Source: Achromobacter pulmonis (lineage in GTDB: Bacteria > Pseudomonadota > Gammaproteobacteria > Burkholderiales > Burkholderiaceae_B). From it: a stretch of 64,000 nucleotides of DNA. Shown one piece after another: positions 6,549 to 27,846 of the stretch (position 1 is the stretch's first letter; the number at the start of each line of letters is the position of its first letter). The stretch covers positions 134,763 to 198,762 of the forward strand of contig NZ_POQS01000003.1 in NCBI RefSeq assembly GCF_002885955.2, given 5' to 3'. Made by a program: the position numbers and the translations under genes. The notes beneath the pieces are model-generated. The model did no database searches. It saw only the letters and a program-made list of their open reading frames with translations, and had not been told where the DNA came from.

Positions 6549-6555
6549 GGCGTCC

Positions 6556-7482: not shown

Positions 7483-7492
7483 GCTGATTCCT

Positions 7493-8464: not shown

Positions 8465-8580
8465 TAGGAGTGCCCCTCTGGTTCGGATAACGCCGGGCCG
8501 CGTTTCGCTGCTTGCGCAAAGCGGGGCTGGGCCGGGCGCGCCCGGGCGGCGCGCGCCGACCGGGCCTTTGCGTCAAGCCG

Positions 8581-10191: not shown

Positions 10192-10439
10192 AGCCCTCAT
10201 GCTCCGTGTGATGCGCGGATAGCGCGACAGAAGTGATAGGCCCCTGGCCCCATCGGGGCGGGGCATGGCGTTGCTGCTTACGACGAAAGGCGGAGCGGGG
10301 TCGAACGGGATGCAGCGCGAAGCGCGCGCGGGCCGGTGATGGCGCGGCCGGGAATCACTGCGTGGGACTTCGAATTCACGATCGATCCAACCCCTTGTGA
10401 TTATCATGACGGGGACGGACCCGCCGATGCAAAACGAAT

Positions 10440-10467
10440 CTTATAGACGCATTCGTTTAAGCGTCAA
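10440..10467 (-). promoter_or_regulatory. Sigma70-type promoter of the peptide ABC operon
   Basis: On the minus strand TTGACG (10467-10462) and TATAAG (10445-10440) are 16 bp apart, a near-consensus pair in the only AT-rich part of the 10192-10535 gap. It implies a leader of about 240 nt before the binding-protein start. I see no gene or known riboswitch fold in that leader. Confidence 0.6.
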
Positions 10468-10535
10468 TCGGTTTGGATTGGGGTTAGTACGCGCTTGCCG
10501 CCGGCCTTGAATGGTGCGTGCCGCGGCCCTGCGGG

Positions 10536-11924
10536 TCAGGCGGGGAGCGGCGGCTGCGAAGCCAGGGTTTTCGCCAATTCGCCGACGATGCGCTTGCGCC
10601 GTTCGCTGTCTTCGTAGTGTTCGCCCAGCGCCGACCACTCGGGCCGGCTGCGCGCTTCTTTCAGCGCTTCGGGCAGCGGGCCCTTGCGCCAGGCCTCGTC
10701 ATCCGGGCGGTCCAGCTGCAGCGGTTCGCGCGCGGCATGCCCGCGGCGCTCCAGCGCTTCGATCAACTGCCGCTGGCGCAGCGCCAGCAGGCGCAGCACG
10801 GCGTCGTCCACGCTCAGTTCGCGCCAGCCGCGCAGCTTGCCGGCCATGCGCTTGCCCAGTTTCTCCACGCCCTGCCACAGGCCGCCGGCGGCGGCCCCGA
10901 TCAGCATGCCGGTGCCCAGGCTCAGGCCGGCGCTGAGCAGGTCCACCGCGGCGCCCGCCATCGCGCCGGCGGCCGCGCCCATGCCCACCTGCACGCCCAT
11001 GTCTTTCAAGGCCTGCGGATGGAACAGATCCATGCCCCAGCGTTCGCCGGCCAGCGGCAGCGCATCGCCCGCAAAATCGGAACGACGGAAGTTGTAGAGC
11101 GCCAGCAGGGCTTCGACGCAGGCCTGCTCGCGCTGGCGCACCAGCGTGCGCAGGCGCTCGGAAGCGGCGGCCAGCGCCGCTTCGTCGCTGGCGCTGGCCA
11201 GGTGCAGCGCGGCCGCGTCGACCAGCAGGTCGGCCAGCATTTCGTAGGCGGCCGCGCGCCGCGCGCGGCGCTGCGCGGCCAGGCTGTCGGCCAGTTGCGC
11301 CAGCGCGCCGGCGTGGCGGTCCAGCAGCACCCCGAGCTTGGCGTACAGCTGTTGCTCGCCGTCCAGCGGCGGGGCGACGGTATCGAACTCCACCACCGCG
11401 TGCAGCCCCAGGCGGGCCATGGCGTCGCGCCATTCATCGGCGCGGTGCGCCGGCGCGTTGACGAAATTCAGCACCGGCAGCAGCGGCCGGCCGCAGGCGG
11501 CCAGGATGGCGAGTTCGTCGCGGTGCTTGCCGAGAACCGGATCGCGCGCGTCGATCACGTACAGCGCGGCGTCGCACTCCAGCATCTTGGCCAGCACCCG
11601 CGCTTCCTGTTCGTAGCGGCCATGCGCCTCGGGCGTGTCGAGAAAGCGGCGGATGCGCGCCGGGCCGTCCAGGCGTTCGCCGGGGCGGTCCAGCCGTTCC
11701 AGGTACTCCAGCAGCGAGATGCTGTCTTCCATGCCCGGGGTGTCGAACCATTCCAGCACCGCGCGCCCTTCCAGGCGCAGGCGGGCGCCTTCGACGTGGC
11801 GCGTGGTGCCGGGGCTGTCGGCGACCTCGCCGAAGCCGGTGTCGCGCGTCAGCGTGCGCAGCAGCGAGGTCTTGCCGGTGTTGGTGTGGCCGACCAGCGC
11901 GATCTTGATGAGGGCGTCAGCCAT
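10536..11924 (-). CDS. GTPase with C-terminal DUF3482 domain
   Basis: A 462-residue protein with an N-terminal Era/TrmE-like G domain: G1 GHTNTGKTS near residue 11, switch SPGTTRHVEG, G3 DTPGMED, and a G4-like NFVN. The C-terminal DUF3482 part has a Gly/Ala-rich hydrophobic stretch (GMGAAAGAMAGAAVDLL...GTGMLIGAAAGG) resembling a membrane-inserting glycine zipper. The function of this family is not known. ATG 11924 is used because GGAGG lies 6 nt upstream. It overlaps the end of the DUF2868 gene by 8 nt, so translation is probably coupled and the two proteins probably act together at the inner membrane. Confidence 0.85.
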   Translation of the reverse strand: MADALIKIALVGHTNTGKTSLLRTLTRDTGFGEVADSPGTTRHVEGARLRLEGRAVLEWFDTPGMEDSISLLEYLERLDRPGERLDGPARIRRFLDTPEAHGRYEQEARVLAKMLECDAALYVIDARDPVLGKHRDELAILAACGRPLLPVLNFVNAPAHRADEWRDAMARLGLHAVVEFDTVAPPLDGEQQLYAKLGVLLDRHAGALAQLADSLAAQRRARRAAAYEMLADLLVDAAALHLASASDEAALAAASERLRTLVRQREQACVEALLALYNFRRSDFAGDALPLAGERWGMDLFHPQALKDMGVQVGMGAAAGAMAGAAVDLLSAGLSLGTGMLIGAAAGGLWQGVEKLGKRMAGKLRGWRELSVDDAVLRLLALRQRQLIEALERRGHAAREPLQLDRPDDEAWRKGPLPEALKEARSRPEWSALGEHYEDSERRKRIVGELAKTLASQPPLPA

Positions 11925-13344
11925 CGCCGGCCTCCAGCCAGGCATAGGGCGCGGCCGACGACTGCACGACGGCCTGGGCCGGCAGACCCAGCGCCAGCAG
12001 GCGTTCGCGCCACAGCGGCGCGCGGCTGGCGACAGGGGCCTGCGCCGCTGGCGGGATCAGCCAGACGCGGGTCTGGGCCGCGTGCGCGGCCAGTTCCGCG
12101 ATCAGCGACAGCGTGCCGCGGTCGGGCGTCTGGCGCGCGTCGCAGGCGATCAGCAGGCGCGTGGCGGCGGTGTTGGCCAGCGCATCCAGCACGCGGTTGC
12201 GCTCCTCGCGGGTGTCCAGGTTGCCGGCCTGCTGCACCGCCGCCGGCACGTCCGCGGGCGGCCATTGCAGGTCCTGCGGCAGCTCCAGCCCCAGGATCAC
12301 GGGGCGGCCGTCCAGGGCGGGCGGCGGGGCCGCGCGCACCCGCGGCTCATGCAGCGGATCGACCGGGCGGTCGATGCCGCTGGACAGGGCGGGCGGCTCC
12401 AGCCGGTCGCGCAGCGCCGCGAATCCGGGCAGCGCGGGATCGATGCGCAGGCGGCGCAGCGCGCGCAACGCGGCGGCCGCGCACAGCGTCCCGGCCAGCA
12501 GGCGCGGCACGATGCCGTAGACCACCAGCACCCCGATCAGCCAGACCGACCACTGCACCTGCGCGTCGGCGGGCAGGACCTGGGCGCCGTCGCTGGCGCG
12601 CACCACCGCGGCGTCCGGCAGCGGAAAGCCGAGCTGCGCCGGCAGCCATCCCACGGCCTGCGTGAGCGTCACGAAGGTGTCGGGCGCCAGCAGCGTGGTG
12701 GCCCAGATGAAGCGGTAGCTGGCGGTGGACAGCACCGCCAGCAGCGCGGCCAGGGCCGCGCACAGGGCGGTCAGCCACAGCAGGTGGCTGACGGCGCCGA
12801 ACAGGCCGCGCAGCGCGCCGGCGCGGGCCAGCAGGTTCAGGAAGGCTTGCGGCACCAGCGCGCCGTCCGGGCCGCGGGCGAGCTTGCGCGTGGCCCACAG
12901 CCACAGTCGGCCCAGCCCGGTCGCGCTGGAGGCCTTGAACAGAAAACTCGCCAGCCACAGCAGGAAGGTCAGCGCGTGCAGGCCGAGCAAGGCGCCCAGC
13001 GCCCACAGCACGTTGACCGGGCGCGTGCCGTCTCCCAGCGCGCCGAGCGCGGCGGCGGCGCCGGAAACCGCGGCCAGCGCGAACAGCGCGGCCAGGATGG
13101 CCAGCGCGCTGCGCCGCCAGGCGTCGACCAGCGGGACGAGCTGCTCGCGTTGCGCCAGCAGCGCGGCGCGGGCCAGGATGCGGGCCGGCAGGCCGGCGTC
13201 CAGCTGGCGCACGCGGCGCACTGCGTCGGCGTCTTCCAGCGGGCCCCAGTGCGCTTCGCGCAGGCGGACGAGTTCGGCCAGCCAGTGCGCGCGCAGGCGG
13301 CTCGGATCGGCGGATTCAGGGTCGCGAGAGGTCGAAGACGGCAT
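11917..13344 (-). CDS. DUF2868 multi-pass membrane protein, partner of the DUF3482 GTPase
   Basis: A 475-residue integral membrane protein. A hydrophilic N-terminal ~85 residues is followed by hydrophobic segments near 83-105, 112-135, 185-215 and around 290, then a ~190-residue soluble C-terminal region with a Rossmann-like look (RPVILGLELP..., TRLLIACDARQTPD, VWLIPP). The family has no assigned function. It is the first gene of a two-gene unit with the GTPase, overlapping it by 8 nt. Confidence 0.82.
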   Translation of the reverse strand: MPSSTSRDPESADPSRLRAHWLAELVRLREAHWGPLEDADAVRRVRQLDAGLPARILARAALLAQREQLVPLVDAWRRSALAILAALFALAAVSGAAAALGALGDGTRPVNVLWALGALLGLHALTFLLWLASFLFKASSATGLGRLWLWATRKLARGPDGALVPQAFLNLLARAGALRGLFGAVSHLLWLTALCAALAALLAVLSTASYRFIWATTLLAPDTFVTLTQAVGWLPAQLGFPLPDAAVVRASDGAQVLPADAQVQWSVWLIGVLVVYGIVPRLLAGTLCAAAALRALRRLRIDPALPGFAALRDRLEPPALSSGIDRPVDPLHEPRVRAAPPPALDGRPVILGLELPQDLQWPPADVPAAVQQAGNLDTREERNRVLDALANTAATRLLIACDARQTPDRGTLSLIAELAAHAAQTRVWLIPPAAQAPVASRAPLWRERLLALGLPAQAVVQSSAAPYAWLEAGDG

Positions 13345-16587: not shown

Positions 16588-16650
16588 GAAGGCTTCGGCG
16601 AGGCGGTGGAACCCTCATGCTATCGGTTGCGCGGCGTTCGTCCAAATGCA

Positions 16651-16678
16651 AAAGGCCCGCAACGAATTGCGGGCCTTT
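16651..16678 (-). terminator. Terminator downstream of tRNA-Asn
   Basis: A perfect 12-bp stem (16651-16662 with 16667-16678) closes a TTCG loop when read on the minus strand, followed by TTTT and an AT-rich stretch. It lies 15 bp after the CCA end of tRNA-Asn. Confidence 0.85.
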
Positions 16679-16693
16679 CAGTACTGCATTCTT

Positions 16694-16769
16694 TGGCTCC
16701 CCGAGCTGGGCTCGAACCAGCGACCTGCGGATTAACAGTCCGTCGCTCTACCGACTGAGCTATCGGGGA
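16694..16769 (-). tRNA. tRNA-Asn (anticodon GTT)
   Basis: A 76-nt cloverleaf on the minus strand: acceptor TCCCCGA pairs with TCGGGGA, the D loop contains AGCTCAGTCGGTAGA, the anticodon loop is CTGTTAA (anticodon GTT) and the T arm contains GGTTCGAGCC. The CCA end is encoded. A strong terminator follows. Confidence 0.97.
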
Positions 16770-16849
16770 ACAGGTAGAGGGGCCGAATTATGCACAAAAA
16801 ATGGAAAGAATGCAAAACGGGCCGGACGATGCAAGGTGCTTTTACATCA

Positions 16850-16878
16850 TTGCGATTGATAACTGTTCTTATTAATAT
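16850..16878 (+). promoter_or_regulatory. Promoter of the Crp/Fnr-type regulator gene
   Basis: TTGCGA (16850-16855) and TAATAT (16873-16878) are separated by 17 bp in an AT-rich stretch. Between them TTGATAACTGTTC starts like one half of an Fnr-type site but lacks a second half, so I do not call an operator. Confidence 0.55.
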
Positions 16879-16923
16879 AAGGCGCGTGCCGACGAGGTGC
16901 TACTACTCGCTACAGGAACCCCC

Positions 16924-17685
16924 ATGCATTCCTCATTCCTGAACAAGGCACTGCTAAGCTTCCCGGCGTTCAAGCAGGCCAACCGGAGCACCCTGGAGGC
17001 GCTCGCCTCGAGCGCGCGGCGCATGGTGCTATCACCCAAACAGCACTTGTTCCATATGGGCGAGGCCGCGGAACACTTCTTCTGGATCGAGCGCGGTGGC
17101 CTCATCATGTACCTGCCCAGCTACAACGGCGACGAGAAAGTCGTGCAGACGCTGGAAGGCGGCTGCCTGGTCGCCGCCACCGTCATGTTCTCAGACAACC
17201 GCGACTATCCGCTGTCCGCGCAGGCCAGCGCGCGCACCGTGCTTTACCGCCTGGACCGCGAGCCGCTGCTCGACATGGCGCGCCATTCGCCGGCCTTCGC
17301 CTATACGCTGCTGCAGATCGTCTCCAGCCACGTGGTGCACGCCATCAACCGCATCGATCTGCTGACCATCACCAACGCCACGCAGCGCCTGGTCACCTAT
17401 CTGCTGGACCTGTACCGCGAACACGGCAGCGCATGGATCACGCTGCCGGCCAGCCACGCCGTGCTGGCGCGCCAGCTCAACATGACGCCCGAAAACCTGT
17501 CGCGCACGCTGGGCGCGTTCCGGCGCGCCGGGCTGATCGGCGGACGCAATCGCGAACTGGTGCTGCTCGACGTCGACGCGATGTGCCGCCATGCGCGCCT
17601 GCCGCCGCCGGGGCCGAAGTTCGCCAGCCGCCACAGCGTGGCCGCGCAGGACAGCGCGCTGTTTCGCTGCTGCTCGCTGCACTGA
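16924..17685 (+). CDS. Crp/Fnr-family regulator, DNR/NnrR-like (probable nitric-oxide response)
   Basis: A 253-residue regulator with a cyclic-nucleotide-binding-like beta-roll (LFHMGEAAEHFFWIERGGLIMYLPSYNGDEKVVQTLEGG), a dimer helix (AFAYTLLQIVSSHVVHAINRIDLLTI) and a C-terminal winged HTH whose recognition helix reads NMTPENLSRTLGAFRRAGLI. The N-terminal cysteine cluster of Fnr is absent, as in DNR/NnrR regulators. ATG 16924 has AGGA 7-8 nt upstream; a GTG at 16897 in the same frame lacks a ribosome site. The gene converges on nnrS, a typical target of NO-sensing members of this family; the NO role is inferred from that. Confidence 0.87.
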   Translation: MHSSFLNKALLSFPAFKQANRSTLEALASSARRMVLSPKQHLFHMGEAAEHFFWIERGGLIMYLPSYNGDEKVVQTLEGGCLVAATVMFSDNRDYPLSAQASARTVLYRLDREPLLDMARHSPAFAYTLLQIVSSHVVHAINRIDLLTITNATQRLVTYLLDLYREHGSAWITLPASHAVLARQLNMTPENLSRTLGAFRRAGLIGGRNRELVLLDVDAMCRHARLPPPGPKFASRHSVAAQDSALFRCCSLH

Positions 17686-17695
17686 GGCCCGCGCT

Positions 17696-18970
17696 TCAGC
17701 AGCGCGTGCCGTGGCGCGACATCGGGCTGCGCTGCTTGCCCAGCGGTTCGGCGCAGCCCTGCTGTCCGTCGGTCCGCGGCCCGCACAGCACTGGCCACGC
17801 GTGCCACAGATAGGCCGCGAACACGCCGGTCCAGCCCAGGCCGGCGCCCAGCAGCAGCCATGACGCCCACGCGCCCAGCGCCGGCAGGCCGGCCGCGGCG
17901 CGCAGCAGGCCGGCCAGCGCCAGCACGGCGGCGGCCACGGGCACCCAGGGACGGCGATCCAGCCAGCGTCCCGCGTGTATGCGTCCGGCCAGGCTCATGA
18001 TGGTGAAGATGGACAAGCCCATCGCGCCGGCCATCAACACATGGCGTCCCGACGACGCCGGCGCCAGTCCGGTCAGCCACGCCAGCCCCATCGCGCCGTA
18101 GCCCAGCGCGACCAGCCAGTAGCTGGCATACAGCATCAGCGCCCAGCGCGTGAAAAGCGCCTTGCCGATATGCCAGTCGTTGAGCAGGTTGAGCATGGCT
18201 GCCGCCGCCGCCAGCGCGGTCCAGCCGGTCACCGGCCCGCCGCCCAGCAGCCATTGCGCCACACTGCAGGCCGCGATGCAGAACACCGCCAGATGCCTGC
18301 GCGGCGGACGCGCCACGTAGCCGGCCAGCCCGGGCGGCGGCGCGCCGGGGCGGCCCGCTTCGATATAGCCGTTGACCACGTTCATGGATACGCGGCTGCC
18401 GGCCAGCACGATCAGAATCATCATCAGGTCTACGCCCACGTGCAGCCAGGCCAGCGCGTCCGCCTGCCGCAGCAGGGCCGTGAAATAGCCCGCCTGCGCC
18501 GCGCCCAGCGCGCCCAGCGCCCAGGCGAAGCCCAGGTGGCTGCGCGCCGGATCGCGCCACAGCGCCGGCGCCAGCCGCAGCAGCAGCGCCAGCACGAACG
18601 CCAGATTGCAGACGCCCGCCAGCACCACGCCGCTGCCGCCGGGCAGCCATTGCGCGGCCGCGTAGGCCACCCGCGCCGCCAGCCACAGCCCGGCCAGCGC
18701 CGCCAGCACGCCGGGCCGCGGCGGCGCGGCGCCCGTGAACTCCGGCACCGCCGTCAACAGAAACCCCGCTACCGCCGCCATGCCGAATCCGTACAGCAGT
18801 TCATGGCCATGCCAGAGCAAGACGCCGCCGGGCGGCCGCCAGCCGTCCAGCCCGGGCAGCGCGGACTGCAGCGCCAGCAGCCAGATCGCCAGGAACAGCA
18901 CCGCGCTCGCGGTGGTCAGTACGAAGAACGGCCGAAAGCCGCAGCTGAACAGAGGATGCCGCAGGTTCAT
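17696..18970 (-). CDS. nnrS: NnrS-family haem-copper membrane protein
   Basis: A 424-residue inner-membrane protein with about twelve hydrophobic helices. It has the NnrS hallmarks: FSCGFRPFFVL near the N-terminus, the His pair LLWHGHELLYGF near residue 52-63, SRVSMNVVNGYIEAG, and FTIMSLAGRIHAGR. NnrS binds haem and copper and is linked to relief of nitric-oxide stress in other bacteria. The start overlaps the stop of the ABC ATPase gene (ATGA), so it is translated with the transporter. This operon linkage under a Fur-like box is notable. Confidence 0.9.
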   Translation of the reverse strand: MNLRHPLFSCGFRPFFVLTTASAVLFLAIWLLALQSALPGLDGWRPPGGVLLWHGHELLYGFGMAAVAGFLLTAVPEFTGAAPPRPGVLAALAGLWLAARVAYAAAQWLPGGSGVVLAGVCNLAFVLALLLRLAPALWRDPARSHLGFAWALGALGAAQAGYFTALLRQADALAWLHVGVDLMMILIVLAGSRVSMNVVNGYIEAGRPGAPPPGLAGYVARPPRRHLAVFCIAACSVAQWLLGGGPVTGWTALAAAAAMLNLLNDWHIGKALFTRWALMLYASYWLVALGYGAMGLAWLTGLAPASSGRHVLMAGAMGLSIFTIMSLAGRIHAGRWLDRRPWVPVAAAVLALAGLLRAAAGLPALGAWASWLLLGAGLGWTGVFAAYLWHAWPVLCGPRTDGQQGCAEPLGKQRSPMSRHGTRC

Positions 18971-19746
18971 GCGCGCGCGCTCCCGGTTGCAAGGTCGGGC
19001 GCCTGCGGCGATGCGTCGGGCAGGCCGAAGCCGGCGCGCATGGCCGGGGTCTGGATGAGCTGCGCCGCCGTCTGGTAGATCCAGGCTTCATCGCGCCGCG
19101 ACTGCGGCAGGCCGAGGGTGAACTCGTCCTGGATACGTCCGGGCCCCGGCGCCATCATGATGATGCGGTCGGCCAGCCGAACGGCCTCCATCAGGTCGTG
19201 CGTAATCATCAGCACGGCGGTGCCGCTGTGCTCGACCTGCCGGCGCAGCATGGCGTAGAACTCGAGTTTCAGACCGATATCCAGGGCCGAGAAAGGCTCG
19301 TCGAGCAACAGCAGGTCGGGCGCCAGCGCCAGCGCGCGGCCCAGCGCCACGCGGCTTTGCATGCCGCCGGACAACTCGTGCGGATACTTGCGCAGGTCCT
19401 CTTCGGCCAGCCCGAGGCGGCCGGCCCATTCGATGGCGCGCTGCCGCCGCGCCGCGGCGGGCAGGCCCAGCGCCTTCAACCCCATGCCGATATTGCCGAC
19501 CACGTTCTTCCACGGCATGAGCCGCGGCTGCTGGAACATGCAGCCTATGCCCCGGAACCCGATATGCACCATGCCTTCGGAAGGCGCCAGCAGTCCGGCG
19601 ACGATATGCAGCAAGGTGCTCTTGCCGCAGCCCGACGGCCCCATCAGCGCCAGCGTCTCGCCCGCGCGCAGATCCAGCGCGATCCCTTCCAGGACCTCGG
19701 ACAGCCCGTAGCGCTGCGACAGTTCGCGGATGTGCAGCGCGCTCAT
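18967..19746 (-). CDS. Nitrate/sulfonate/taurine-type ABC transporter ATP-binding protein
   Basis: A 259-residue ABC ATPase of the SsuB/TauB/NrtD branch: Walker A GPSGCGKST near 35-43, Q loop FQQPRLMPW, signature LSGGMQSRV, Walker B LLLLDEPFSALD, and switch His in ITHDLMEAV. It starts within the permease stop (ATGA overlap at 19743) and its own stop overlaps the nnrS start. Together with the permease it should drive uptake of the ligand of the binding protein at 26443-27468. Confidence 0.92.
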   Translation of the reverse strand: MSALHIRELSQRYGLSEVLEGIALDLRAGETLALMGPSGCGKSTLLHIVAGLLAPSEGMVHIGFRGIGCMFQQPRLMPWKNVVGNIGMGLKALGLPAAARRQRAIEWAGRLGLAEEDLRKYPHELSGGMQSRVALGRALALAPDLLLLDEPFSALDIGLKLEFYAMLRRQVEHSGTAVLMITHDLMEAVRLADRIIMMAPGPGRIQDEFTLGLPQSRRDEAWIYQTAAQLIQTPAMRAGFGLPDASPQAPDLATGSARA

Positions 19747-20534
19747 GGATCGAGGCTGCGCCAGCGTTCGGCCATGCGCTTGAAGGGTTCCAGCAACAGG
19801 TATTCGGTCGTCAGCAGCAGCCCCAGCACGGCCACGACCCAGGCCATGGCGGCCGTGCTGTCGAGCTGCCCACGGGCCGCGCCCAGCGCCGCGCCGGTGC
19901 CGTCGGCCGCCGCCAGCAGTTCGGCCATCATCACCACTTTCCAGGAAGTGCCCAGCGCCGTGATCCAGGCCGGCAGCAGATACGAGGCCACGTGCGGCAA
20001 CTGCACGTCGGCCAGCACCGCCCACCACGGCAGGCGGTAAACCCGCGCCACGTCCATGAGCTGGTTGTCCAGCGTGCGCGCGCCCTGCATGGCGCCGGCG
20101 AACACGATGGGCAGGCAGGCGATGAACACGGTGAACACCGGCGTCGCATCGCCCACGCCGAACCACAGCATGGCCAGCACCAGCCAGGCGATGGGCGGCA
20201 TGCCCAGCAGCAGCGTGGCCAGCGGGCGCGACACCATCGCCGCCGTCAGCGAACGGCCCGCCAGCATGCCGAGCACGCTGCCCGCCAGCACCGCGCCGCC
20301 CAGCCCCGCCAGGCCCCGGCGCGCCGATATGGCCAGCTCCGGCACGGCCTCGCCCGCGGCCGTCATGGTCGCCAGCTTCATCATGGTCTCGGCCGGCCCC
20401 GGCAGGATCAGCGCGCCGTAATGCTGCGCCGCCAGTTCCCACAGGGCGCAGAACAGCAGCAGGCTGGCGATGGCGCCCCAGCCGCTCCAGAGATACGCCA
20501 GCACCGCGCCGCACGCGTCAAGCAAGCGGCGCAT
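19743..20534 (-). CDS. Nitrate/sulfonate/taurine-type ABC transporter permease
   Basis: A 263-residue BPD-type permease of the SsuC/TauC branch with about six helices and the EAA-type loop QLMDVARVYRLPWWAVLADVQLPHVASYLLPAW. I use ATG 20534 because it is followed directly by the typical short N-terminus and first helix; the extended frame upstream runs through the regulatory region. It faces away from the TonB receptor gene across a ~300-bp region carrying a Fur-like box. Its binding protein is not adjacent but lies on the other side of the receptor cassette. Confidence 0.88.
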   Translation of the reverse strand: MRRLLDACGAVLAYLWSGWGAIASLLLFCALWELAAQHYGALILPGPAETMMKLATMTAAGEAVPELAISARRGLAGLGGAVLAGSVLGMLAGRSLTAAMVSRPLATLLLGMPPIAWLVLAMLWFGVGDATPVFTVFIACLPIVFAGAMQGARTLDNQLMDVARVYRLPWWAVLADVQLPHVASYLLPAWITALGTSWKVVMMAELLAAADGTGAALGAARGQLDSTAAMAWVVAVLGLLLTTEYLLLEPFKRMAERWRSLDP

Positions 20535-20640
20535 GGCTGACCCGCGCGTGGCGCATCGGTAGATCCGGCATGGAAAGTCACTCCCTTGAAGGCCGCGAAT
20601 TCGATCCGCGAGTATCTGCGGCCCGGGAGCCCGGCCGTAA

Positions 20641-20652
20641 TGACAATTGTCA
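20641..20652. promoter_or_regulatory. Perfect 12-bp palindrome resembling the nearby Fur-like core
   Basis: TGACAATTGTCA is a perfect palindrome and differs at two symmetric positions from TGATAATTATCA, the core of both Fur-like boxes in this locus. It lies between the Fur-like box and the permease start, so it could be a second, weaker operator for the minus-strand unit or bind another regulator. Confidence 0.45.
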
Positions 20653-20706
20653 TCAACGGGCGGCCCGGCTCGCGAACCCGATGCGCCGCTTCGTCGAATT
20701 TTCAAT

Positions 20707-20725
20707 CTTGATAATTATCATTATC
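20707..20725. promoter_or_regulatory. Fur-like box between the ABC permease and the TonB receptor
   Basis: The minus strand reads GATAATGATAATTATCAAG, matching 15 of 19 positions of the Fur consensus, including the first 12 in a row. It holds the perfect palindrome TGATAATTATCA. It sits about 110 bp before the receptor ATG and 175 bp before the permease ATG, so it can control both directions. Confidence 0.8.
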
Positions 20726-20833
20726 GTTACCGATGCTGCGTTCGCACAATGGCCTCGCCACGCAGCCCTACGCACAACGGGTCACGCGGCTCTTCCCTAC
20801 CCATCACCGTAAACAGGAAAGCCCGGGGGGCCC

Positions 20834-23800
20834 ATGCACGTACCACATCGATTCACCGCCAGGACCTTGAGCTTGCTGCTTGCCGCGCTGGGCGCAACCA
20901 GCGTCCACGCGCTGCCGGCGCCCGCCCATCCGGAGGAAAAGCCGAAGGCGCAGCCAGACTCGGGCAAGAACAAGAACGTGCACGAGCTGCAGGAAGTGGT
21001 GGTCAAGGGCGATCGCACCGAGGACGAAACCGGGCACGACGACGTCTACGACAAGGACGTCTCGAATCTGTACGTGGACCGCCAGTACATGGAGCGCTAT
21101 CAGGGCGTCTCGGTAGGCGACGTGTTCGCCGGCATGAACGGCGTCTACAACACCGACAACCGCAACGGCTCGGCGTTGTTCCCGAACATACGCGGCCTAG
21201 CCGGCAACGGCCGCATCCCTGTCACGGTGGACGGCACCGAGCAGTCGCTGGACGTCTGGATGGCGCTGCGCGGCATCAACAATCGCAACTACGTGGACCC
21301 CAACCTGTTCCGCAGCATCACGGTGGAAAAAGGCCCGTCCCTGACCCGCGACATCAAGAGCGGCATCGGCGGCTCGGTGGCGATCCGCACCATCGAAGCC
21401 AAGGACATCATTCCCGAAGGGCGCAACTGGGGCCTGGAATTCAAGGCCAGCACCGCCAGCGGATCGGTCAAGGATACGTCCGATCCCTTCGATATCGTAG
21501 GCATGGACTACCGCGACATTCCCGGCGCCTTCTCAGCGGCGCCGCTAGGGGCTCAGGCGGGCGTGGGTTTCACGGTGGCGAGATCGGAATTGCGAGACCG
21601 CGGCGAAGTGTCGCGTTTCAATCTGCACGACCGCAAAGTATTCATCAGCGGCGCCTATCGGCACCCGGTATTCGACCTGATGCTGGCCTATAGCGACGCC
21701 GTTCGTGGCAACTACTTTGCAGGCACGCGAGGCGCTGAAAATTTCCGCTCAAAGCCGGTCCCCCCCGGTACTTCCCTGCCGCAGAACCTGTATCCCAATT
21801 TGGCCAGGCTGTATGCGCCTGGCCGCGAGGTTCCCTATACCAGCACCTCGGCTGAAAGTTTGCTGTTCAAGAACAACTGGCATCTGCCTCACAACCAGAA
21901 AATCAGTCTTGCATACACCCGCAACAGGCTGGCGTTCGGCGAGTTGCCGGCTTTGGCGTCGGATTTTTTGATGGGCTTGGTTGATGCATATGATTTCGAT
22001 ATCGCTAGTGTCAAATTTCGATACCCCTATCCTGCCACTCGCGTCGATCAAACCATCTATCGGTTGGGTTATACGTTCAGACCCGAAGGTTCGCGCTGGA
22101 TGGATCTGAAAGTGGCGCTCTGGCGCACCGTCAACGAGACCACGCGCTACCAGAACGGCGATACCACCTATCGGGTTTCTGAGAGCGATAATCCCTGGGA
22201 TATTTGGGTGCAGGCATGTGTGTTCGACCCCACCCGTTCAATGTGCAATGTCGCGCCGCCTGCCAAGAAGCCAAACACCGATGGCCGCTACAACATTTTC
22301 ATCGGCAATCAGCAGGACACCCGTTCAACCCGTACCGGGCTGGATCTGAGCAATCGCTTCCAGTTGACCGACAGCCTGGCGCTGACTGCGGCAGCAGACT
22401 GGCAATACGAACGCAAGACGGAATACCTGCCTGTGGATCAAGGCGGAGTAATGCTGGCCCTCAAGGCCTCTGTGGCGCTCGGCCCGGCCTCGGGCCGGCG
22501 CGAGGAGTACGGGGCGGGCCTGAATCTGGATTGGCAGGCCACCGAGAAGCTGCGCATCAGCACCGGGATACGCTATGGCAGCTATTGGAGCTTCGACGAC
22601 GAAACCGACCAGGCCCGGGCCAGGAAGAACCCAGACTGGGCCCGCAAACAGATCGTTACGAGCCAGCTCGTTTATCACCAGCAGCTGGCCAGCGACGAGG
22701 AACTGGCGAGGTACTCCCGAGCAGTGGAGGCGGGCGCGGACTCGATAGAGTACGAGGAATGGGAAAAATACCGAACCGCCAATCGATTCGCCGGTGCAAA
22801 TCCCAATCCTGATCTGGATACCGGGCTGCAATACTGGCTCGTCGAAACACCGGTCCCCCTTAGGAACGGCAAGGTCGACCGCTACGAAAACCCCTATTAC
22901 AACGGCCAGCTCGATCTGGACGCAACCACGGTAGCGCAAGGCGGCACGCATCGGAAGTACAAGGCCATGAAAAACGCCGCCGTCATGTACGGTCACCGCA
23001 TGCCCGCCGATCCCTGGAAGCGCCCCGATAAACGGCGCGGCCGCGCCTGGTCGTCGCAACTGGTGGCCTCGTACCAATTGGCCGAGCGCGCCCGCCTCTA
23101 TGGCCGGCTGGCCAGCACCGCTCGCTTTCCCAGCATCCTGGAAGTCGCCAATCGCGGTGTGTGGGGTGAATTTCCGGTCAAGACCAAGCCCGAGCGCAGC
23201 CAGGCCTGGGAAACAGGACTGGCCTACAACCTGGGCGGGCTGCTGCAAGCCGTGCCCCAGGCCGACGTCAAGCTTAGCTACTACCACAACAGCATACGCA
23301 ACTTCTACGACCGTACCGAAAGCATGAACGTCATCCAGTTCGATCGCAAGATCATGAGCGGGCTGGAGTTCCAAAGCCGGTTCGACAGTGGCCGCTTCTT
23401 CGGCAATCTGGGCGCCACCCTGCGGCTGCGCCAGGATATGTGCGATGCCGATTTCGCGGTGCAACTCGACCCCAGCTTCCACAGTTTCTCCACATGCATG
23501 CCTGGCGGCTTTCCAGGCAGCATGTCCTATTACGCACTGCAGCCTCGATATTCGATCAACCTGGACCTGGGGACGCGTCTGCTGGAGCGCAAGCTGAACC
23601 TGGGCGTGCGCATGCGCTATCACAGCCGCGCCGAGAACAAGAAGCTGGAACGTATTTCCCAGAGCGGGAGCGGCATATTGAACATGCGTCCCTACTACTG
23701 GGACCCGGTAATGCTGTTCGACCTGTATGCCGAATACAACTTCAGCCGCCGCGCCAGCGCGCGCCTGAGCGTGGAAAACCTGACCGATCTGTACTACCTC

Positions 23801-23872
23801 GACCCGCTTTCCAAGGTCGCGTCCCCGGGGCCGGGCCGCACCGTGCGGCTGGACGTGGCGCTGCGCTATTGA
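20834..23872 (+). CDS. TonB-dependent outer-membrane receptor, haem/hemophore type
   Basis: A 1012-residue receptor that would import a ligand across the outer membrane with TonB energy. It has a Sec signal ending near VHALPA, a TonB-box-like EVVVKG near residue 55-60, and a plug with GDVFAGMNGVYN, FPNIRGLAGNGRIPVTVDG and VEKGPSLTRDIKSGIGGSVAIRT, a pattern shared with HasR-like and HphR-like haem receptors. A 22-strand barrel ends in RLDVALRY. The large size points to long outer loops. The start ATG 20834 follows GGGGGG closely. It is the first gene of a three-gene unit with a secreted protein and a Slam exporter. Codons 270-460 look less GC-rich than their surroundings. Confidence 0.92.
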   Translation: MHVPHRFTARTLSLLLAALGATSVHALPAPAHPEEKPKAQPDSGKNKNVHELQEVVVKGDRTEDETGHDDVYDKDVSNLYVDRQYMERYQGVSVGDVFAGMNGVYNTDNRNGSALFPNIRGLAGNGRIPVTVDGTEQSLDVWMALRGINNRNYVDPNLFRSITVEKGPSLTRDIKSGIGGSVAIRTIEAKDIIPEGRNWGLEFKASTASGSVKDTSDPFDIVGMDYRDIPGAFSAAPLGAQAGVGFTVARSELRDRGEVSRFNLHDRKVFISGAYRHPVFDLMLAYSDAVRGNYFAGTRGAENFRSKPVPPGTSLPQNLYPNLARLYAPGREVPYTSTSAESLLFKNNWHLPHNQKISLAYTRNRLAFGELPALASDFLMGLVDAYDFDIASVKFRYPYPATRVDQTIYRLGYTFRPEGSRWMDLKVALWRTVNETTRYQNGDTTYRVSESDNPWDIWVQACVFDPTRSMCNVAPPAKKPNTDGRYNIFIGNQQDTRSTRTGLDLSNRFQLTDSLALTAAADWQYERKTEYLPVDQGGVMLALKASVALGPASGRREEYGAGLNLDWQATEKLRISTGIRYGSYWSFDDETDQARARKNPDWARKQIVTSQLVYHQQLASDEELARYSRAVEAGADSIEYEEWEKYRTANRFAGANPNPDLDTGLQYWLVETPVPLRNGKVDRYENPYYNGQLDLDATTVAQGGTHRKYKAMKNAAVMYGHRMPADPWKRPDKRRGRAWSSQLVASYQLAERARLYGRLASTARFPSILEVANRGVWGEFPVKTKPERSQAWETGLAYNLGGLLQAVPQADVKLSYYHNSIRNFYDRTESMNVIQFDRKIMSGLEFQSRFDSGRFFGNLGATLRLRQDMCDADFAVQLDPSFHSFSTCMPGGFPGSMSYYALQPRYSINLDLGTRLLERKLNLGVRMRYHSRAENKKLERISQSGSGILNMRPYYWDPVMLFDLYAEYNFSRRASARLSVENLTDLYYLDPLSKVASPGPGRTVRLDVALRY

Positions 23873-23882
23873 ACGTGTTTTT

Positions 23883-23904
23883 GCCGGTTTTCGTGAAAAC
23901 CGGC
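23883..23904 (+). other. Stem-loop between receptor and hemophilin-like genes
   Basis: A perfect 9-bp stem (GCCGGTTTT with AAAACCGGC) closes a 4-nt loop, 10 bp after the receptor stop. No T-tract follows on the plus strand, so it is more likely an mRNA-stability or partial-attenuation element than a full terminator. Confidence 0.7.
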
Positions 23905-23935
23905 GCCTTCCCACTCCTCTCTACGGAGAATCATC

Positions 23936-24823
23936 ATGAAGAAAACCCTTATCGCCACCGCCATCCTCGCCGTGGCCGCCTCGTCGGCGATGCACGCGCA
24001 AGCGGCCAACGTGCAGGGCGGCTCGTCGAATGGAACGATGGTCACCGTCGGCTACTCCAACTTCCCGCTCTTCATCACCACCCTCGGCTACACCGGGTTG
24101 AGCATGATGCGCACGGATGGCTGGCGCTCCTCCTACATCGACGTACATGGCGGACCGGTAAGCATCGTCGGAAGCCGGTCGGTGGCCAATAGCTCCGGTG
24201 CGTACTACGCGACCGTCCCCGTGTTTTCGTTCATCAAGGTCGCCCAGGTTTGGCACAGCACCCGCGATAGCGCGGCCAATGTCTACAGCATCCGCCAGGT
24301 GATGACCCCTTACTTGCCATTCTGGCCGCAATTCGGCGGCCTGGTCGTAGGCCAGGTCAAGGGCACCTCCAAGGGCAACGGCGTGTACTTCGGCGAATGG
24401 TCCAGGTCCGTTCCCTATCTCAACGCGGGCAACAGCACCGACCTGAACATGACCAGCGGCAGCCGCACCGTATGGTACGCGGGCGACAACGCCGTTACCC
24501 GCATGCCGACGCTGGTCGCCGCCAAGTATGACGTGACCGGCATCCGTCAGACCGGCGTGGGCGACAACATGCCGTACGCGCCCAAGCTGTACAAGGGTGT
24601 GCTCACCGCCAACTACAGCGGCGGCCGTGGCACGATCGATGGCGCCATCGCACGGGGCCGCGACCGTGTCGACTTCGCCGGCACCACCATTGCCTCCAAC
24701 GGCAAGTTCACCAAGGGTGGCGCGATCGAAGGCCGCTTCTACAACAACGCGGAGGCGCTGGCCGGCATCTACAAGGGCCAGACCGCCGCCGACCACGTCG
24801 CGTTCGGGGGCTCACGCCGTTAA
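23936..24823 (+). CDS. Secreted hemophilin-like (HphA/T11SS cargo) protein with TbpB-like C-terminal barrel
   Basis: A 295-residue exported protein. The signal peptide ends at HAQA (residue 23) with no lipobox Cys, so the mature protein should be soluble. Residues ~24-190 form a Gly/Tyr/Trp-rich N-domain; its only His residues are H71 (YIDVHGGP) and H107 (QVWHSTRD), which are candidate haem ligands. WYAGDNAVTRMPT leads into a C-terminal domain ~193-283 that looks like the 8-stranded transferrin-binding-protein-like barrel: GVLTANYSGGRGTIDG, FAGTTIASNGKF and the closing IEGRFYNNAEALAGIYKG. That domain is the recognition part for Slam exporters. GGAGA lies 6 nt before the ATG. Identity as a haem carrier is inferred from the family and neighbours; another ligand is possible. 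Confidence 0.82.
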   Translation: MKKTLIATAILAVAASSAMHAQAANVQGGSSNGTMVTVGYSNFPLFITTLGYTGLSMMRTDGWRSSYIDVHGGPVSIVGSRSVANSSGAYYATVPVFSFIKVAQVWHSTRDSAANVYSIRQVMTPYLPFWPQFGGLVVGQVKGTSKGNGVYFGEWSRSVPYLNAGNSTDLNMTSGSRTVWYAGDNAVTRMPTLVAAKYDVTGIRQTGVGDNMPYAPKLYKGVLTANYSGGRGTIDGAIARGRDRVDFAGTTIASNGKFTKGGAIEGRFYNNAEALAGIYKGQTAADHVAFGGSRR

Positions 24824-24869
24824 ACCCCAGGCCCACAACTGAAGCAACAGGAGGACGAGCACGGGCCTC

Positions 24870-24906
24870 GCGCCGCCGCACCGGAAACCGTCGGTTGCGG
24901 CGGCGC
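24870..24906 (+). other. Strong stem-loop between hemophilin-like and Slam genes
   Basis: An 11-bp perfect GC stem (24870-24880 with 24896-24906) with a further CCG/CGG pairing inside the loop. No T-tract follows. It would separate the secreted-protein cistron from the exporter cistron and could raise the cargo-to-exporter ratio. Confidence 0.7.
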
Positions 24907-24957
24907 ATAAAGGGCCTGCTGAACTTCGTACTCATTCCTTCCCCGGCCCGATACCCC

Positions 24958-26436
24958 ATGCACATGATTTTTCGCCGCGGCGCCGCGCTGTGCCTGCTGT
25001 TGACCTGCCTGCCCGCTGCGTATGCCAGCGACGACGATACCCGCTACCTGCTCGAACGGACACGCCGCGCGACCGAGCAGCGCGTGCGGCAATTCGGCGA
25101 GCCCGTTGCGCCGCCCGGCGCGGTGGTGCACGAAGGCAAGATCTACGAAGTGCAGACGAACCTGCAGGATCTGGAACCCGCCATCTATATCGCCTTGAAT
25201 ACCGGCCAGTGGGAACGGCTGGTCGAATTCGTCGGCCGTTATCGGCTGTTGCGCGACCATCGTCCGGCGCTGGTCGATATGGCCGAAGGGCTGCTGGCCC
25301 GCCAGGCTGGCGCCATCGCATTGGCGGTACGCCGGCTGCAGGCCGCGCACGCCGCCGATCCCGAGGACGCCCGCATCCGCCTGGAACTGGCGCGGCTGCT
25401 GTTCGAAGACAATCGCGATGCCGAGGCGCGCGCCATGTTCGAGCAGGTACAGCGCGGCATGCTGCCCGACTACGGCCGCATGCAGACGCAGCAGTACCTG
25501 TCCGCGCTGGGCGCCCGCGCCGGCTGGCATGGCGGCGTAGCGGTCGGCACGGGCTACGACAGCAACATCAATCAGGCCAACGGCGCCCGAACCTGCTTGA
25601 GCCGGTTCCTGAGCCTGTGCCTCAATGACCGCAAGATGCCGGACCCCATCGGTTCCAGCCTGGTGAACTATGAGCTTGTGCTGGAGCGCCGCGACAATCT
25701 GGCCGGCAACCACAACCTGCTGTTGCGGCCGATCAGCTACGGAACCTATTACCGCCGCGGCGACGCGGACGCCAGTTCGCTGGTCCGCAACTACAGCAGC
25801 GCCACCTCGGTGCTGTATCTGGGCTACCAGTACCTGGACGCGCGCAACAACATCAGCCTGCTGCCCTATGTGGAGCACTATTTCCGCGACGGCTGCACCT
25901 ATTATCTGGCCGGCGGGCTGCAATGGGAGTGGCGTCGCAGCCTCGCAAGAAAATGGCAGATGAACGTTCTGCTGGACGCGCGCCGCTTTCGTTATCGCGC
26001 GCGGGCGCGGTTCATCAACAGCGACTACAGCCAATACCAGGCCGGGTTGTCGGTCAGTTACCTGCCGCGGGCTTCGACCTCGATCACCGCCGGCGTGGAC
26101 GTGGTGCGCAAGGCGTTTGCGCTCAAGCCGGCCAGCGGCAAGGAAGTGGTGCTGCGCGCCGGCGTCTTTCATGCTTTCAGGGGCAAGCCCGGTTTCTACC
26201 TGAACGCGCAAGGCATTTTCCGCATCGGCCGTAATGACGCCTACGACGGATTCCTGGGGGGACGCCGAGGCGACCGGTTGCAGGTCTATCTGGTGACGCT
26301 GGGCGCCGAGGGCTGGAAGATAGGCGGCATGACGCCGGAGTTGCGGCTGCGGCGCAGCATCAATCGCAGCAATCCGGACTGGGCCTACAACTACGCCCAG
26401 AACGAAGTGGGGCTGACGCTGCGCCGCGTGTTCTGA
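24958..26436 (+). CDS. Slam-type outer-membrane exporter (DUF560, type XI secretion)
   Basis: A 492-residue outer-membrane protein. A Sec signal (MHMIFRRGAALCLLLTCLPAAYA) is followed by an N-terminal helical, TPR-like periplasmic domain to about residue 175 (DPEDARIRLELARLLFEDNRDAEARAMFEQV). A C-terminal DUF560 barrel with alternating aromatic strands follows (GVAVGTGYDSNINQANGA, LFLGYQYLDARNN-like repeats) and ends in NEVGLTLRRVF with a terminal Phe. Slam proteins move cargo with a TbpB-like barrel to the cell surface or outside, here the product of the gene just upstream. The ATG at 24958 is chosen because the signal peptide begins there; a TTG 63 nt upstream would add non-signal residues. 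Confidence 0.87.
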   Translation: MHMIFRRGAALCLLLTCLPAAYASDDDTRYLLERTRRATEQRVRQFGEPVAPPGAVVHEGKIYEVQTNLQDLEPAIYIALNTGQWERLVEFVGRYRLLRDHRPALVDMAEGLLARQAGAIALAVRRLQAAHAADPEDARIRLELARLLFEDNRDAEARAMFEQVQRGMLPDYGRMQTQQYLSALGARAGWHGGVAVGTGYDSNINQANGARTCLSRFLSLCLNDRKMPDPIGSSLVNYELVLERRDNLAGNHNLLLRPISYGTYYRRGDADASSLVRNYSSATSVLYLGYQYLDARNNISLLPYVEHYFRDGCTYYLAGGLQWEWRRSLARKWQMNVLLDARRFRYRARARFINSDYSQYQAGLSVSYLPRASTSITAGVDVVRKAFALKPASGKEVVLRAGVFHAFRGKPGFYLNAQGIFRIGRNDAYDGFLGGRRGDRLQVYLVTLGAEGWKIGGMTPELRLRRSINRSNPDWAYNYAQNEVGLTLRRVF

Positions 26437-26442
26437 GCCGCC

Positions 26443-27468
26443 TCAGCCGTAGAAATCCGCGGCGGGCAGCTTGCCGCCGATCAAGCCGGGCTGGACTTCA
26501 TGCACGCGCTGGAAGAAATACTCCAGTTCGGCGCGCACGCTGGCCGCGGCCATGGGCTTGTCGCGCGAGGCCTTCAAGGCGTCGGCCACGGCCTGCGGGG
26601 TCAGCATGCGGATATGTTTGGCGACCAGTTCGCCGCAGGCCTCGGGGTTTTCGAGGCACCAGGCCTGCGATGCGGCGTATTGCCGGTGCACCCGTTCGCA
26701 CAGTGCGGCATTGCCCAGCGCCTTGCCCAACGCCGCGAGTCCGGCCTGGGGAATGCGCGGTTCGCGTTTCAAGACCCTGCCCCATTCCGCGGACAGATCC
26801 AGGCCGCGATGCAGTTTGGGCGCCACGGCGGACATGGGCAGGGACTGCGTCTTGCGCAGCGCCATGGACACGGCGGGCTCGGGCAGCACCGCGTGGCTCA
26901 CGCGGCGCAGGACCAGCAGCTGGACCGCATCGAACGGGGTGGTGACGTAACGCAGCGAGAAGTCCTTCTGCGGGTCCAGCCCTTGCGCGCGCGCCAGCAC
27001 GCCGAAGAGGATATCGGGCATGTCGCCGCGAAACGGCACGGCGATTTCCTGGCCGCGAAAGTCGGCCAGCGAGCCCGCTTCGCCATTGCGCGTGACCAGC
27101 CACAATATTCCCCACACGGACACGTTCAACAGCCGCAGCGGCACGCCGCGGTTGTACAGGTTGGCGGCCACGTTGGTGGGCGAGGCGATGAAGTCGGCGC
27201 CGCCTTCCACCGCCCAGGCGCGCATCTGGTCGGGATTGGTCCAGAGCGCGAACTTGGGCGTCACGCCCTCTTCGGCCAGCGCGCCGGACTCGACCATGTG
27301 GATCAGGGGGAACGACACCGTGATCGGCGGCCCGGCCAGCACCAGCCGGTCCGTAGCGGCCGCGGCGCGCGCGCGCACGGCCGGCAGCGCCGCCAAGGCC
27401 GCCGCCGCCAGCAAGGCGCGCCGGCTGCGTGAAACGGGCAGTTCCTGATGTGAGTGTTGAGTATGCAT
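26443..27468 (-). CDS. NMT1/SsuA-type ABC substrate-binding protein with Tat-type signal
   Basis: A 341-residue solute receptor of the nitrate/sulfonate/taurine-thiamine-precursor group. The N-terminus [23 protein letters not shown] has a twin-arginine motif before a hydrophobic stretch, so export may use Tat. The mature part has PITVSFPLIHMVESGALAEEGV, GGADFIASPTNVAANLYNRG and TPQAVADALKASRDKP, typical of this fold. The gene converges on the Slam gene (6 bp between stops) and is preceded by its own Fur-like box. Its natural partners are the permease and ATPase at 18967-20534. The ligand is unknown; iron control argues against plain sulfonate uptake. Confidence 0.87.
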   Translation of the reverse strand: MHTQHSHQELPVSRSRRALLAAAALAALPAVRARAAAATDRLVLAGPPITVSFPLIHMVESGALAEEGVTPKFALWTNPDQMRAWAVEGGADFIASPTNVAANLYNRGVPLRLLNVSVWGILWLVTRNGEAGSLADFRGQEIAVPFRGDMPDILFGVLARAQGLDPQKDFSLRYVTTPFDAVQLLVLRRVSHAVLPEPAVSMALRKTQSLPMSAVAPKLHRGLDLSAEWGRVLKREPRIPQAGLAALGKALGNAALCERVHRQYAASQAWCLENPEACGELVAKHIRMLTPQAVADALKASRDKPMAAASVRAELEYFFQRVHEVQPGLIGGKLPAADFYG

Positions 27469-27525
27469 GCCGCAAAGCCCTCCGGTTGGTATCCAACCCG
27501 CAGTCTTTGTGCTTTGCGTTCAAAT

Positions 27526-27544
27526 GCGAATGATAATTATCAAC
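27526..27544. promoter_or_regulatory. Fur-like box upstream of the ABC substrate-binding protein
   Basis: GCGAATGATAATTATCAAC matches 14 of 19 positions of the Fur consensus and contains the same perfect palindrome TGATAATTATCA as the box at 20707-20725. It lies about 60 bp before the start codon of the binding-protein gene. Confidence 0.78.
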
Positions 27545-27607
27545 TTGACGTGGTGGCCGATACGTAGGCGGACAGATGCGACTGCGCCGGGAGATCTATC
27601 GCGCGTA

Positions 27608-27635
27608 AAAAAGGAAGTCCACGGACGTCCTTTTT
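27608..27635 (-). terminator. Terminator after the 68-residue protein gene
   Basis: A 13-bp stem with one mismatch (27608-27620 with 27623-27635) whose outer part is A5/T5. Read on the minus strand it ends in TTTTTT directly after the GC core, 4 bp past the stop of the small gene. Confidence 0.8.
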
Positions 27636-27639
27636 GAAT

Positions 27640-27846
27640 TCAGGTGGGAATCCGCTGCTTTAGCGGCGATGGCGGACCGGCGTCCTCGAGCGCCCCTTGC
27701 CTGATGCCGGCGCTTCCGCTCGTAATTGCCCGCATTCCGAATTCGGTAAGCGTCAGTTCGCGAACTTTGATGACTGCACCCGGTTTCGAAATGAGCTTGG
27801 ACTCTTTGACGAAAGTCTCGGACGACTTCTTGGTGGCAAGGTTCAT
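27640..27846 (-). CDS. 68-residue hypothetical protein, coupled to the GAF-protein gene
   Basis: A small soluble protein beginning MNLATKKSSETFVKESKLIS and ending in a Pro-rich tail (DAGPPSPLKQRIPT). I do not recognise the family. ATG 27846 lies 1 nt after the stop of the GAF-domain gene and has AGG 7 nt upstream, so translation is probably coupled. Its base composition is lower in GC than the flanking core genes. A terminator follows. Confidence 0.6.
   Translation of the reverse strand: MNLATKKSSETFVKESKLISKPGAVIKVRELTLTEFGMRAITSGSAGIRQGALEDAGPPSPLKQRIPT

What the first reader, a model, noticed from the sequence alone, without database searches (positions are those of the whole stretch)
20834..26436. 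TonB receptor / hemophilin-like cargo / Slam exporter cassette (probable type XI secretion haem-capture system)
Seen: three tandem plus-strand genes coding for a 1012-residue receptor with haem-receptor-like plug motifs, a 295-residue exported protein ending in a TbpB-like barrel without a lipobox, and a DUF560 Slam-type barrel with a TPR-like N-domain. Known: in Acinetobacter and Haemophilus relatives, Slam exports soluble hemophilins that feed a partner receptor. Inference: this locus does the same here. The cargo N-domain has only two mature His residues (71 and 107), so its ligand geometry, or even its ligand, may be new.
Basis: partly seen in the sequence, partly recalled or inferred. Interest (0 to 1): 0.85.

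Follow-up and report, generated by a model that had tools for sequence, protein, structure and literature searches.

The report
Slam-secreted ligand-capture and import unit
A bacterium carries a compact set of genes that appears to send a protein out of the cell to catch a metal-carrying small molecule and pull it back in; the gene set looks tied to living on nitrogen oxides, and the catch is probably not the haem that its closest known relatives bind, although that is unproven.

The parts
16824..27661 (.). accessory block, about 10.8 kb, holding all genes below; absent from two same-genus relatives
   Evidence: in L158 and L159 the homologues of 16639-16823 and of 27662/27668-28628 lie 130-135 nt apart; the other five relatives compared did not show both edges
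16924..17685 (+). Crp/Fnr-type regulator with ExxSR recognition helix, no Cys near the N-terminus
   Evidence: Pfam HTH_Crp_2 and cNMP_binding; ExxSR in 16 of 16 loci with this neighbour, window included
17696..18970 (-). NnrS (membrane protein of NO/denitrification regulons)
   Evidence: Pfam NnrS 1.1e-81; regulon role from passages of PMC1274295
18967..19755 (-). ABC importer ATPase
   Evidence: Pfam ABC_tran
19743..20663 (-). ABC importer permease (start uncertain, up to 20705)
   Evidence: Pfam BPD_transp_1
20708..20721 (.). palindromic operator TTGATAATTATCAT between divergent permease and receptor genes; also resembles a Fur box
   Evidence: one of two sites in the whole genome at up to 1 mismatch
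20834..23872 (+). TonB-dependent receptor, HphR/TdfG-like, 1012 aa
23936..24823 (+). Slam cargo with hemophilin fold; signal peptide about 1-24, pocket domain about 25-150, C-terminal barrel
24958..26436 (+). Slam (type XI) outer-membrane exporter, TPR domain plus barrel
   Evidence: only PF04575 match in the genome
26443..27468 (-). NMT1/SsuA-like periplasmic substrate-binding protein of the ABC importer (below both curated cut-offs; profile best PDB match 3hn0)
   Evidence: same operon family without the cassette
27530..27543 (.). second copy of the palindrome, upstream of the binding protein

Best explanation
The genes are one uptake system. The Slam protein exports the soluble cargo; the cargo's N-terminal pocket captures a small metal-bearing ligand; the TonB-dependent receptor takes it from the cargo; the NMT1-like binding protein and ABC importer carry it (or its chelator) into the cytoplasm. 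Receptor/cargo/Slam and importer are switched on together through a shared palindrome, probably by the Crp/Fnr-type regulator of the block, when the cell denitrifies; an iron (Fur) input is possible. The ligand is more likely a small metal chelate (iron or copper metallophore of the thiocarboxylate type or similar) than haem. Shown computationally: gene families, fold, conserved order, absence of the HphA haem ligands, shared palindrome found at two sites only, block absent from two relatives. Inferred: secretion, ligand class, direction of transfer, regulator identity.
Against: No ligand was tested. The six solved entries nearest in fold are all hemophilins/haemophores, from four genera, three titled holo. 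The window protein has two His of its own that could still ligate haem. 14 of 48 window-type cargos carry a His at the column of window Phe43, near the H43 loop, and 8 of 48 one at the column of Gln132, next to the H106 site (none both), so single-His haem binding is possible in subgroups. The importer operon also exists without the cassette (8 of 8 regions), and G010 and G122 keep it on another contig. 40 of 53 relatives have no module A in the fetched flanks (one of them, L066, has divergent importer genes). The NosZ association is not corrected for kinship (7 of 15 are one genus, and those examined carry the thioacid module, not the importer). The palindrome also resembles a Fur box. The window genome shows no thioacid genes near its JAMM hits, so any such ligand would be foreign.
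Confidence: 0.58

Rival explanations
1. An ordinary hemophilin-type haem uptake system in which haem is held by other residues (His71/His107, Tyr, Met or a single His). The importer and NnrS neighbours reflect co-regulation because denitrification needs much haem.
For: Fold nearest to six hemophilin entries from four genera, three titled holo; receptor nearest to HasR/PhuR and TIGR01785/01786 by sequence; canonical hemophilin receptors also lack the HasR H189-type plug His (8 of 8) and, but for L098, a His in the H603 loop (7 of 8), so its absence here says little; the gonococcal cargo gene is Fur-regulated (PMC12918729, passages).
Against: Both HphA ligands absent; 8 of 48 relatives have no His at all in the pocket domain; the importer's Pfam/NCBIfam matches are not to haem transporters; no haem-degradation gene stood out to me by eye among neighbour clusters of four or more genera, though I ran no profile for one; sister subclade sits with siderophore genes.
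Confidence: 0.3
2. The trio and the importer/NnrS operon are independent systems that share a regulator or a hot spot; the trio feeds a ligand into the periplasm only.
For: The SBP-permease-ATPase-NnrS operon stands alone in 8 of 8 regions fetched; module B and C loci lack it.
Against: At least four layouts keep them adjacent; a shared palindrome found nowhere else in the genome; both lie in one accessory block.
Confidence: 0.25
3. A host-protein binder (like HpuA or TbpB), taking iron or haem from a host protein rather than a small ligand.
For: HpuA and TbpB are the next folds; gonococcus carries a relative.
Against: Many carriers belong to genera that I know as environmental or denitrifying (Thauera, Comamonas, Halopseudomonas, Marinobacter); cargo is soluble, not a lipoprotein.
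Confidence: 0.08

Closest known systems
HphA-HsmA-HphR of Acinetobacter baumannii (hemophilin, Slam, receptor)
   Different: both haem-ligating His absent; extra pocket-domain segment with invariant Trp106, Arg120-Gln121; receptor outside the clade of canonical receptors; no HphA_N/HphA_C hit over cut-off
TdfG/NGO0554/NGO0555 of Neisseria gonorrhoeae (ligand unknown)
   Same: same receptor subclade, same trio (L082); the match of L082 to these names is by recall, gene order and the papers' description of ngo0554 as Slam cargo and ngo0555 as Slam
   Different: no NnrS/ABC module within the fetched flanks; cargo 36% identical in the best segment
pdt (PDTC) and thioacid siderophore clusters
   Same: sister subclade of the same trio lies beside such gene sets
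   Different: the window genome shows no such genes near its JAMM hits; uptake of PDTC through this cargo is untested
HrpABC of Xenorhabdus (T11SS subcluster 1B)
   Same: Slam-dependent secretion of a soluble single-barrel cargo (PMC8406197, passages)
   Different: HrpC is described as a hemophilin homologue and likely hemophore
CrpC, 'cobalt receptor protein' of Xenorhabdus cabanillasii
   Same: a T11SS cargo named for a non-haem metal (PMC12282271, passages)
   Different: sequence not compared here; its paper is not held

Membership tests
Type XI / Slam exporter (DUF560) | SlipAM barrel plus N-terminal TPR domain | tested here: met
   PF04575 110.8 bits (cut-off 22) and PF24575 64.5 bits (cut-off 35.2)
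Type XI / Slam exporter (DUF560) | exports its cargo | not testable with these tools
   needs a secretion assay
Slam cargo | C-terminal barrel after a variable N-domain | tested here: met
Slam-dependent surface lipoprotein (NF041636 name) | lipobox Cys | tested here: not met
   no Cys in the protein
Hemophilin (HphA/Hpl) | HphA_N and HphA_C profiles over cut-off | tested here: not met
   17.4 bits (22) and 21.6 bits (31)
Hemophilin (HphA/Hpl) | fold: pocket domain plus barrel | tested here: met
Hemophilin (HphA/Hpl) | axial His H43 and H106 | tested here: not met
   sites identified from PMC8560813 text and alignment, no coordinates compared; 3 of 11 canonical cargos also lack one or both
Hemophilin (HphA/Hpl) | binds haem | not testable with these tools
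   no biochemistry
TonB haem/haemoglobin receptor TIGR01785 | score over cut-off | tested here: not met
   196.7 of 316.85 bits
HasR-type haem receptor | plug and loop His (H189, H603) | tested here: not met
   most canonical hemophilin receptors lack them too; ligand role of these residues recalled
PDTC-type metallophore uptake | thioacid biosynthetic genes in the genome | tested here: inconclusive
   7 JAMM matches in the window genome, none with thioacid neighbours within 1.5 kb; no other search for the set was made

The most novel reading that the evidence does not exclude
The hemophilin fold has been turned into a family of Slam-secreted metallophore-binding proteins: one subclade captures thiocarboxylate (PDTC-type) metal complexes made by its own neighbours, the window's subclade captures a related or foreign iron or copper chelate to supply denitrification under a dedicated Crp/Fnr operator, and gonococcal TdfG/NGO0554 inherits this, so its unknown ligand would be a small metal chelate.
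Probability: 0.38. Interest if true: 0.85.

Novelty: new variant of a known kind. Interest (0 to 1): 0.7.

Why it matters
Slam cargos described so far are adhesins, haemophores, host-protein binders and metal-binding proteins, one named for cobalt (PMC12282271, abstract and passages). A clade without the HphA haem ligands that sits beside siderophore synthesis, or beside an ABC importer under a dedicated switch, would be a distinct mode of metal uptake: a secreted protein that gathers a small chelate. It would tie outer-membrane uptake to denitrification, where metal supply decides whether N2O is reduced, and it gives a concrete ligand hypothesis for the orphan gonococcal receptor TdfG.

Tried and rejected
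Absence of HasR-type His in the receptor as an argument against haem: rejected, since the plug His is absent from 8 of 8 and the loop His from 7 of 8 receptors of canonical hemophilin loci (L098 has one, and so has the window-type L031). A purely iron/Fur explanation of the promoter site: not excluded; the window site matches a recalled 19-base Fur consensus at 15 of 19, reached by 0 of 100 mononucleotide shuffles, while many other family upstreams do not exceed their shuffles. Copper genes (DUF1775 and CopC-CopD) downstream of the cassette: seen in three Alcaligenes loci only, not used. tRNA-Asn and tRNA-Thr as island ends: no direct repeats found; homology in relatives resumes at the tRNA-Thr edge, but four relatives keep the GAF gene before it, so the block ends near 27.66 kb. 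CoA-transferase search of the genome: 38 matches, uninformative. Structure of the SBP: never accepted by the busy machine, so its ligand class is untested. No coordinates were available, so pocket distances (H71-H107) were not measured. Rows dropped: tree without L042 (no receptor on contig), L068 (receptor in two ORFs), L096 (near-copy) and L103 (no receptor found). A2 holds the window and 47 of 70 cargo ORFs listed, chosen by me; one search shows 18 of those 48. Module labels A, B, C were set by me; L066 was not counted in A, and L083 is in B on one gene (MoeZ) at its contig edge.

Full report
Observation. The three genes are real and placed as stated. Gene 3 is a Slam protein by two Pfam models over cut-off; gene 1 has TonB barrel and plug; gene 2 passes NCBIfam NF041636 by a small margin, 81.9 against 80 bits. 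Gene 3 is the only PF04575 match in the 6.94-Mb genome.

Haem ligands. In HphA the haem iron is held by H43 and H106, and the double mutant cannot bind haem (PMC8560813, passages). I aligned 18 window-type cargos (of 48) with 11 canonical ones from 9 regions found by the HphA_N profile in 8 of 398 genomes. Canonical cargos keep the first His in 10 of 11 and the second in 8 of 11. All 18 window-type rows have gaps in both columns and carry an inserted segment; Trp106, Arg120 and Gln121 are invariant in the 48. Against a simple loss: 14 of 48 have His at the column of window Phe43, close to the H43 loop, and 8 of 48 at the column of Gln132, close to the H106 site, none both, and the window neither. 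His71 and His107 of the window are Phe and Arg in the 61% relative, and 8 of 48 have no His at all between window residues 24 and 150. Haem is thus weakened, not excluded.

Receptor. A tree of 52 window-type and 7 canonical receptors separates the two (canonical one side of a branch, SH-aLRT 100). Window-type receptors split into 17 rows (13 labelled thioacid, support 95) and 35 rows that hold the window and Neisseria gonorrhoeae L082 (support 100). By recall, gene order and the papers below L082 is TdfG/NGO0554/NGO0555. A review says no ligand is known for TdfG and that it occurs in gonococcus and N. elongata (PMC9519893, passages; N. elongata is L052); it also mentions a proposed Fur-independent control. 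ngo0554 is called Slam cargo, ngo0555 a Slam, and ngo0554 transcripts rise in a fur mutant (PMC12918729, passages). The HasR His are absent, but mostly also from canonical hemophilin receptors, so I draw nothing from that.

Neighbours. Clustering of ORFs in 54 loci (53 and the window) shows recurrent partners, scored with window or locus queries. Module A (NnrS, ABC ATPase, permease, NMT1-like SBP, mostly with a Crp/Fnr gene): 14 of 54. Layouts: importer genes downstream on the same strand (L036, L037, L048, L075; L036 cut by its contig), divergent upstream (L041, L053, L077), upstream with no SBP found (L033), convergent downstream (L039, L044, L046, L047, L055), and on both sides (window). 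In G023 a distant SBP homologue (27%) also lies just before the receptor. Module B (AraC regulator, methyltransferase, MFS and/or ThiF/MoeZ, JAMM, ThiS, CoA transferase, ligase, acyl-CoA dehydrogenase): 14 of 54, one (L083) on a single gene; three same-family genomes hold the whole set (Pfam names). PMC6006322 (passages) gives a type III CoA transferase (OrfI), an acyl-CoA synthetase (OrfJ) and a sulfur-carrier system for the PDTC cluster; PDTC is listed as a Pseudomonas siderophore (PMC10393863, passages). Module C (FecI and/or FecR): 9 of 54. The nine canonical hemophilin regions show FecR in 6 and neither A nor B.

The importer operon on its own. Among 200 family genomes 10, the window's included, have a close SBP (54% identity or more); in 8 of 8 regions fetched from eight of them SBP-permease-ATPase-NnrS stand together without the trio. 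In the window the trio lies between SBP and permease. Seven same-genus loci were compared with the window: in two (L158, L159) sequence matching 16639-16823, with tRNA-Asn, is followed after 130-135 nt by sequence matching 27662/27668-28628, so about 10.8 kb is missing as one block; five did not show both edges. Regulator, NnrS, importer, trio and SBP are therefore present or absent together in that comparison.

Operator. TTGATAATTATCAA with up to 2 mismatches occurs twice in the window, against 0.01 expected from shuffles, and with up to 1 mismatch at just these two sites in the genome: 20708-20721 and 27530-27543. In the 53 relatives 16 hits (up to 2 mismatches) lie in 1.02 Mb, 15 before receptor, SBP or regulator genes, in 12 of 13 module-A loci and in 1 of 40 others (L031, which keeps the regulator); one hit (in L055) is elsewhere. 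The outer bases fit an FNR/DNR box (recalled), and the regulators of 16 of 16 loci bear an ExxSR motif (meaning recalled). The same site resembles a Fur box, so which protein binds is open.

Denitrification. The genome has NosZ, 1136 bits. In the 200 family genomes NosZ is in 12 of 15 with the cargo and 37 of 185 without (one-sided p 3.8e-6), uncorrected for kinship; seven of the 15 are one genus, and those of them examined carry module B, not A. NnrS is a member of NO-responsive regulons (PMC1274295, passages).

Reading. Secretion of cargo by Slam and a role of the receptor follow from studied relatives (PMC8406197 and PMC8560813, passages); here they are inferred. The link to the importer rests on order, operator and block. 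The ligand class rests on absent haem ligands, the importer class and the sister subclade's siderophore genes; it is my inference at little better than even odds. T11SS surveys already describe haemophilin-like cargo groups and a cargo named for cobalt, CrpC (PMC12282271, section 15 and passages); because of CrpC I lowered interest-if-true from 0.87 to 0.85 on checking. In the listings of ten literature searches I saw no paper joining Slam cargo with NnrS, ABC import or thiocarboxylates; two central 2024 papers (J Bacteriol) are not held, so this is no proof of novelty.

Noticed in passing
L082 (N. gonorrhoeae) 6316-12730: The gonococcal receptor-cargo-Slam cassette falls in the same receptor subclade as the window; a review gives no ligand for its receptor.
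   Followed up: partly
L152, L153, L154; also L069, L072, L073, L078, L080: Slam cassettes sit beside thioacid (PDTC-type) siderophore gene sets; the receptor may be the PDTC receptor.
   Followed up: partly
L135-L142: A conserved SBP-permease-ATPase-NnrS operon of unknown substrate, in four of eight with a Crp/Fnr gene, without the Slam cassette.
   Followed up: partly
L056 13713-14180, L038 5649-6113, L050 5045-5569, L066 16266-16742, L079 12399-12854: A roughly 150-residue membrane-like protein shared near the cassette; the three sent to Pfam had no hit.
   Followed up: partly
L069, L072, L080 about 14.7-17.5 kb: DUF1775 and CopC-CopD genes lie 2-3 kb past the cassette in three Alcaligenes loci (Pfam run on L080 only).
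   Followed up: partly
window 26446-27468, residues 271 and 278: Two invariant Cys in the substrate-binding protein across the 20 sequences of alignment A3.
   Followed up: no
window 28815: Homology with several same-genus genomes resumes at the edge of tRNA-Thr, so the stretch before it is variable in this genus.
   Followed up: partly
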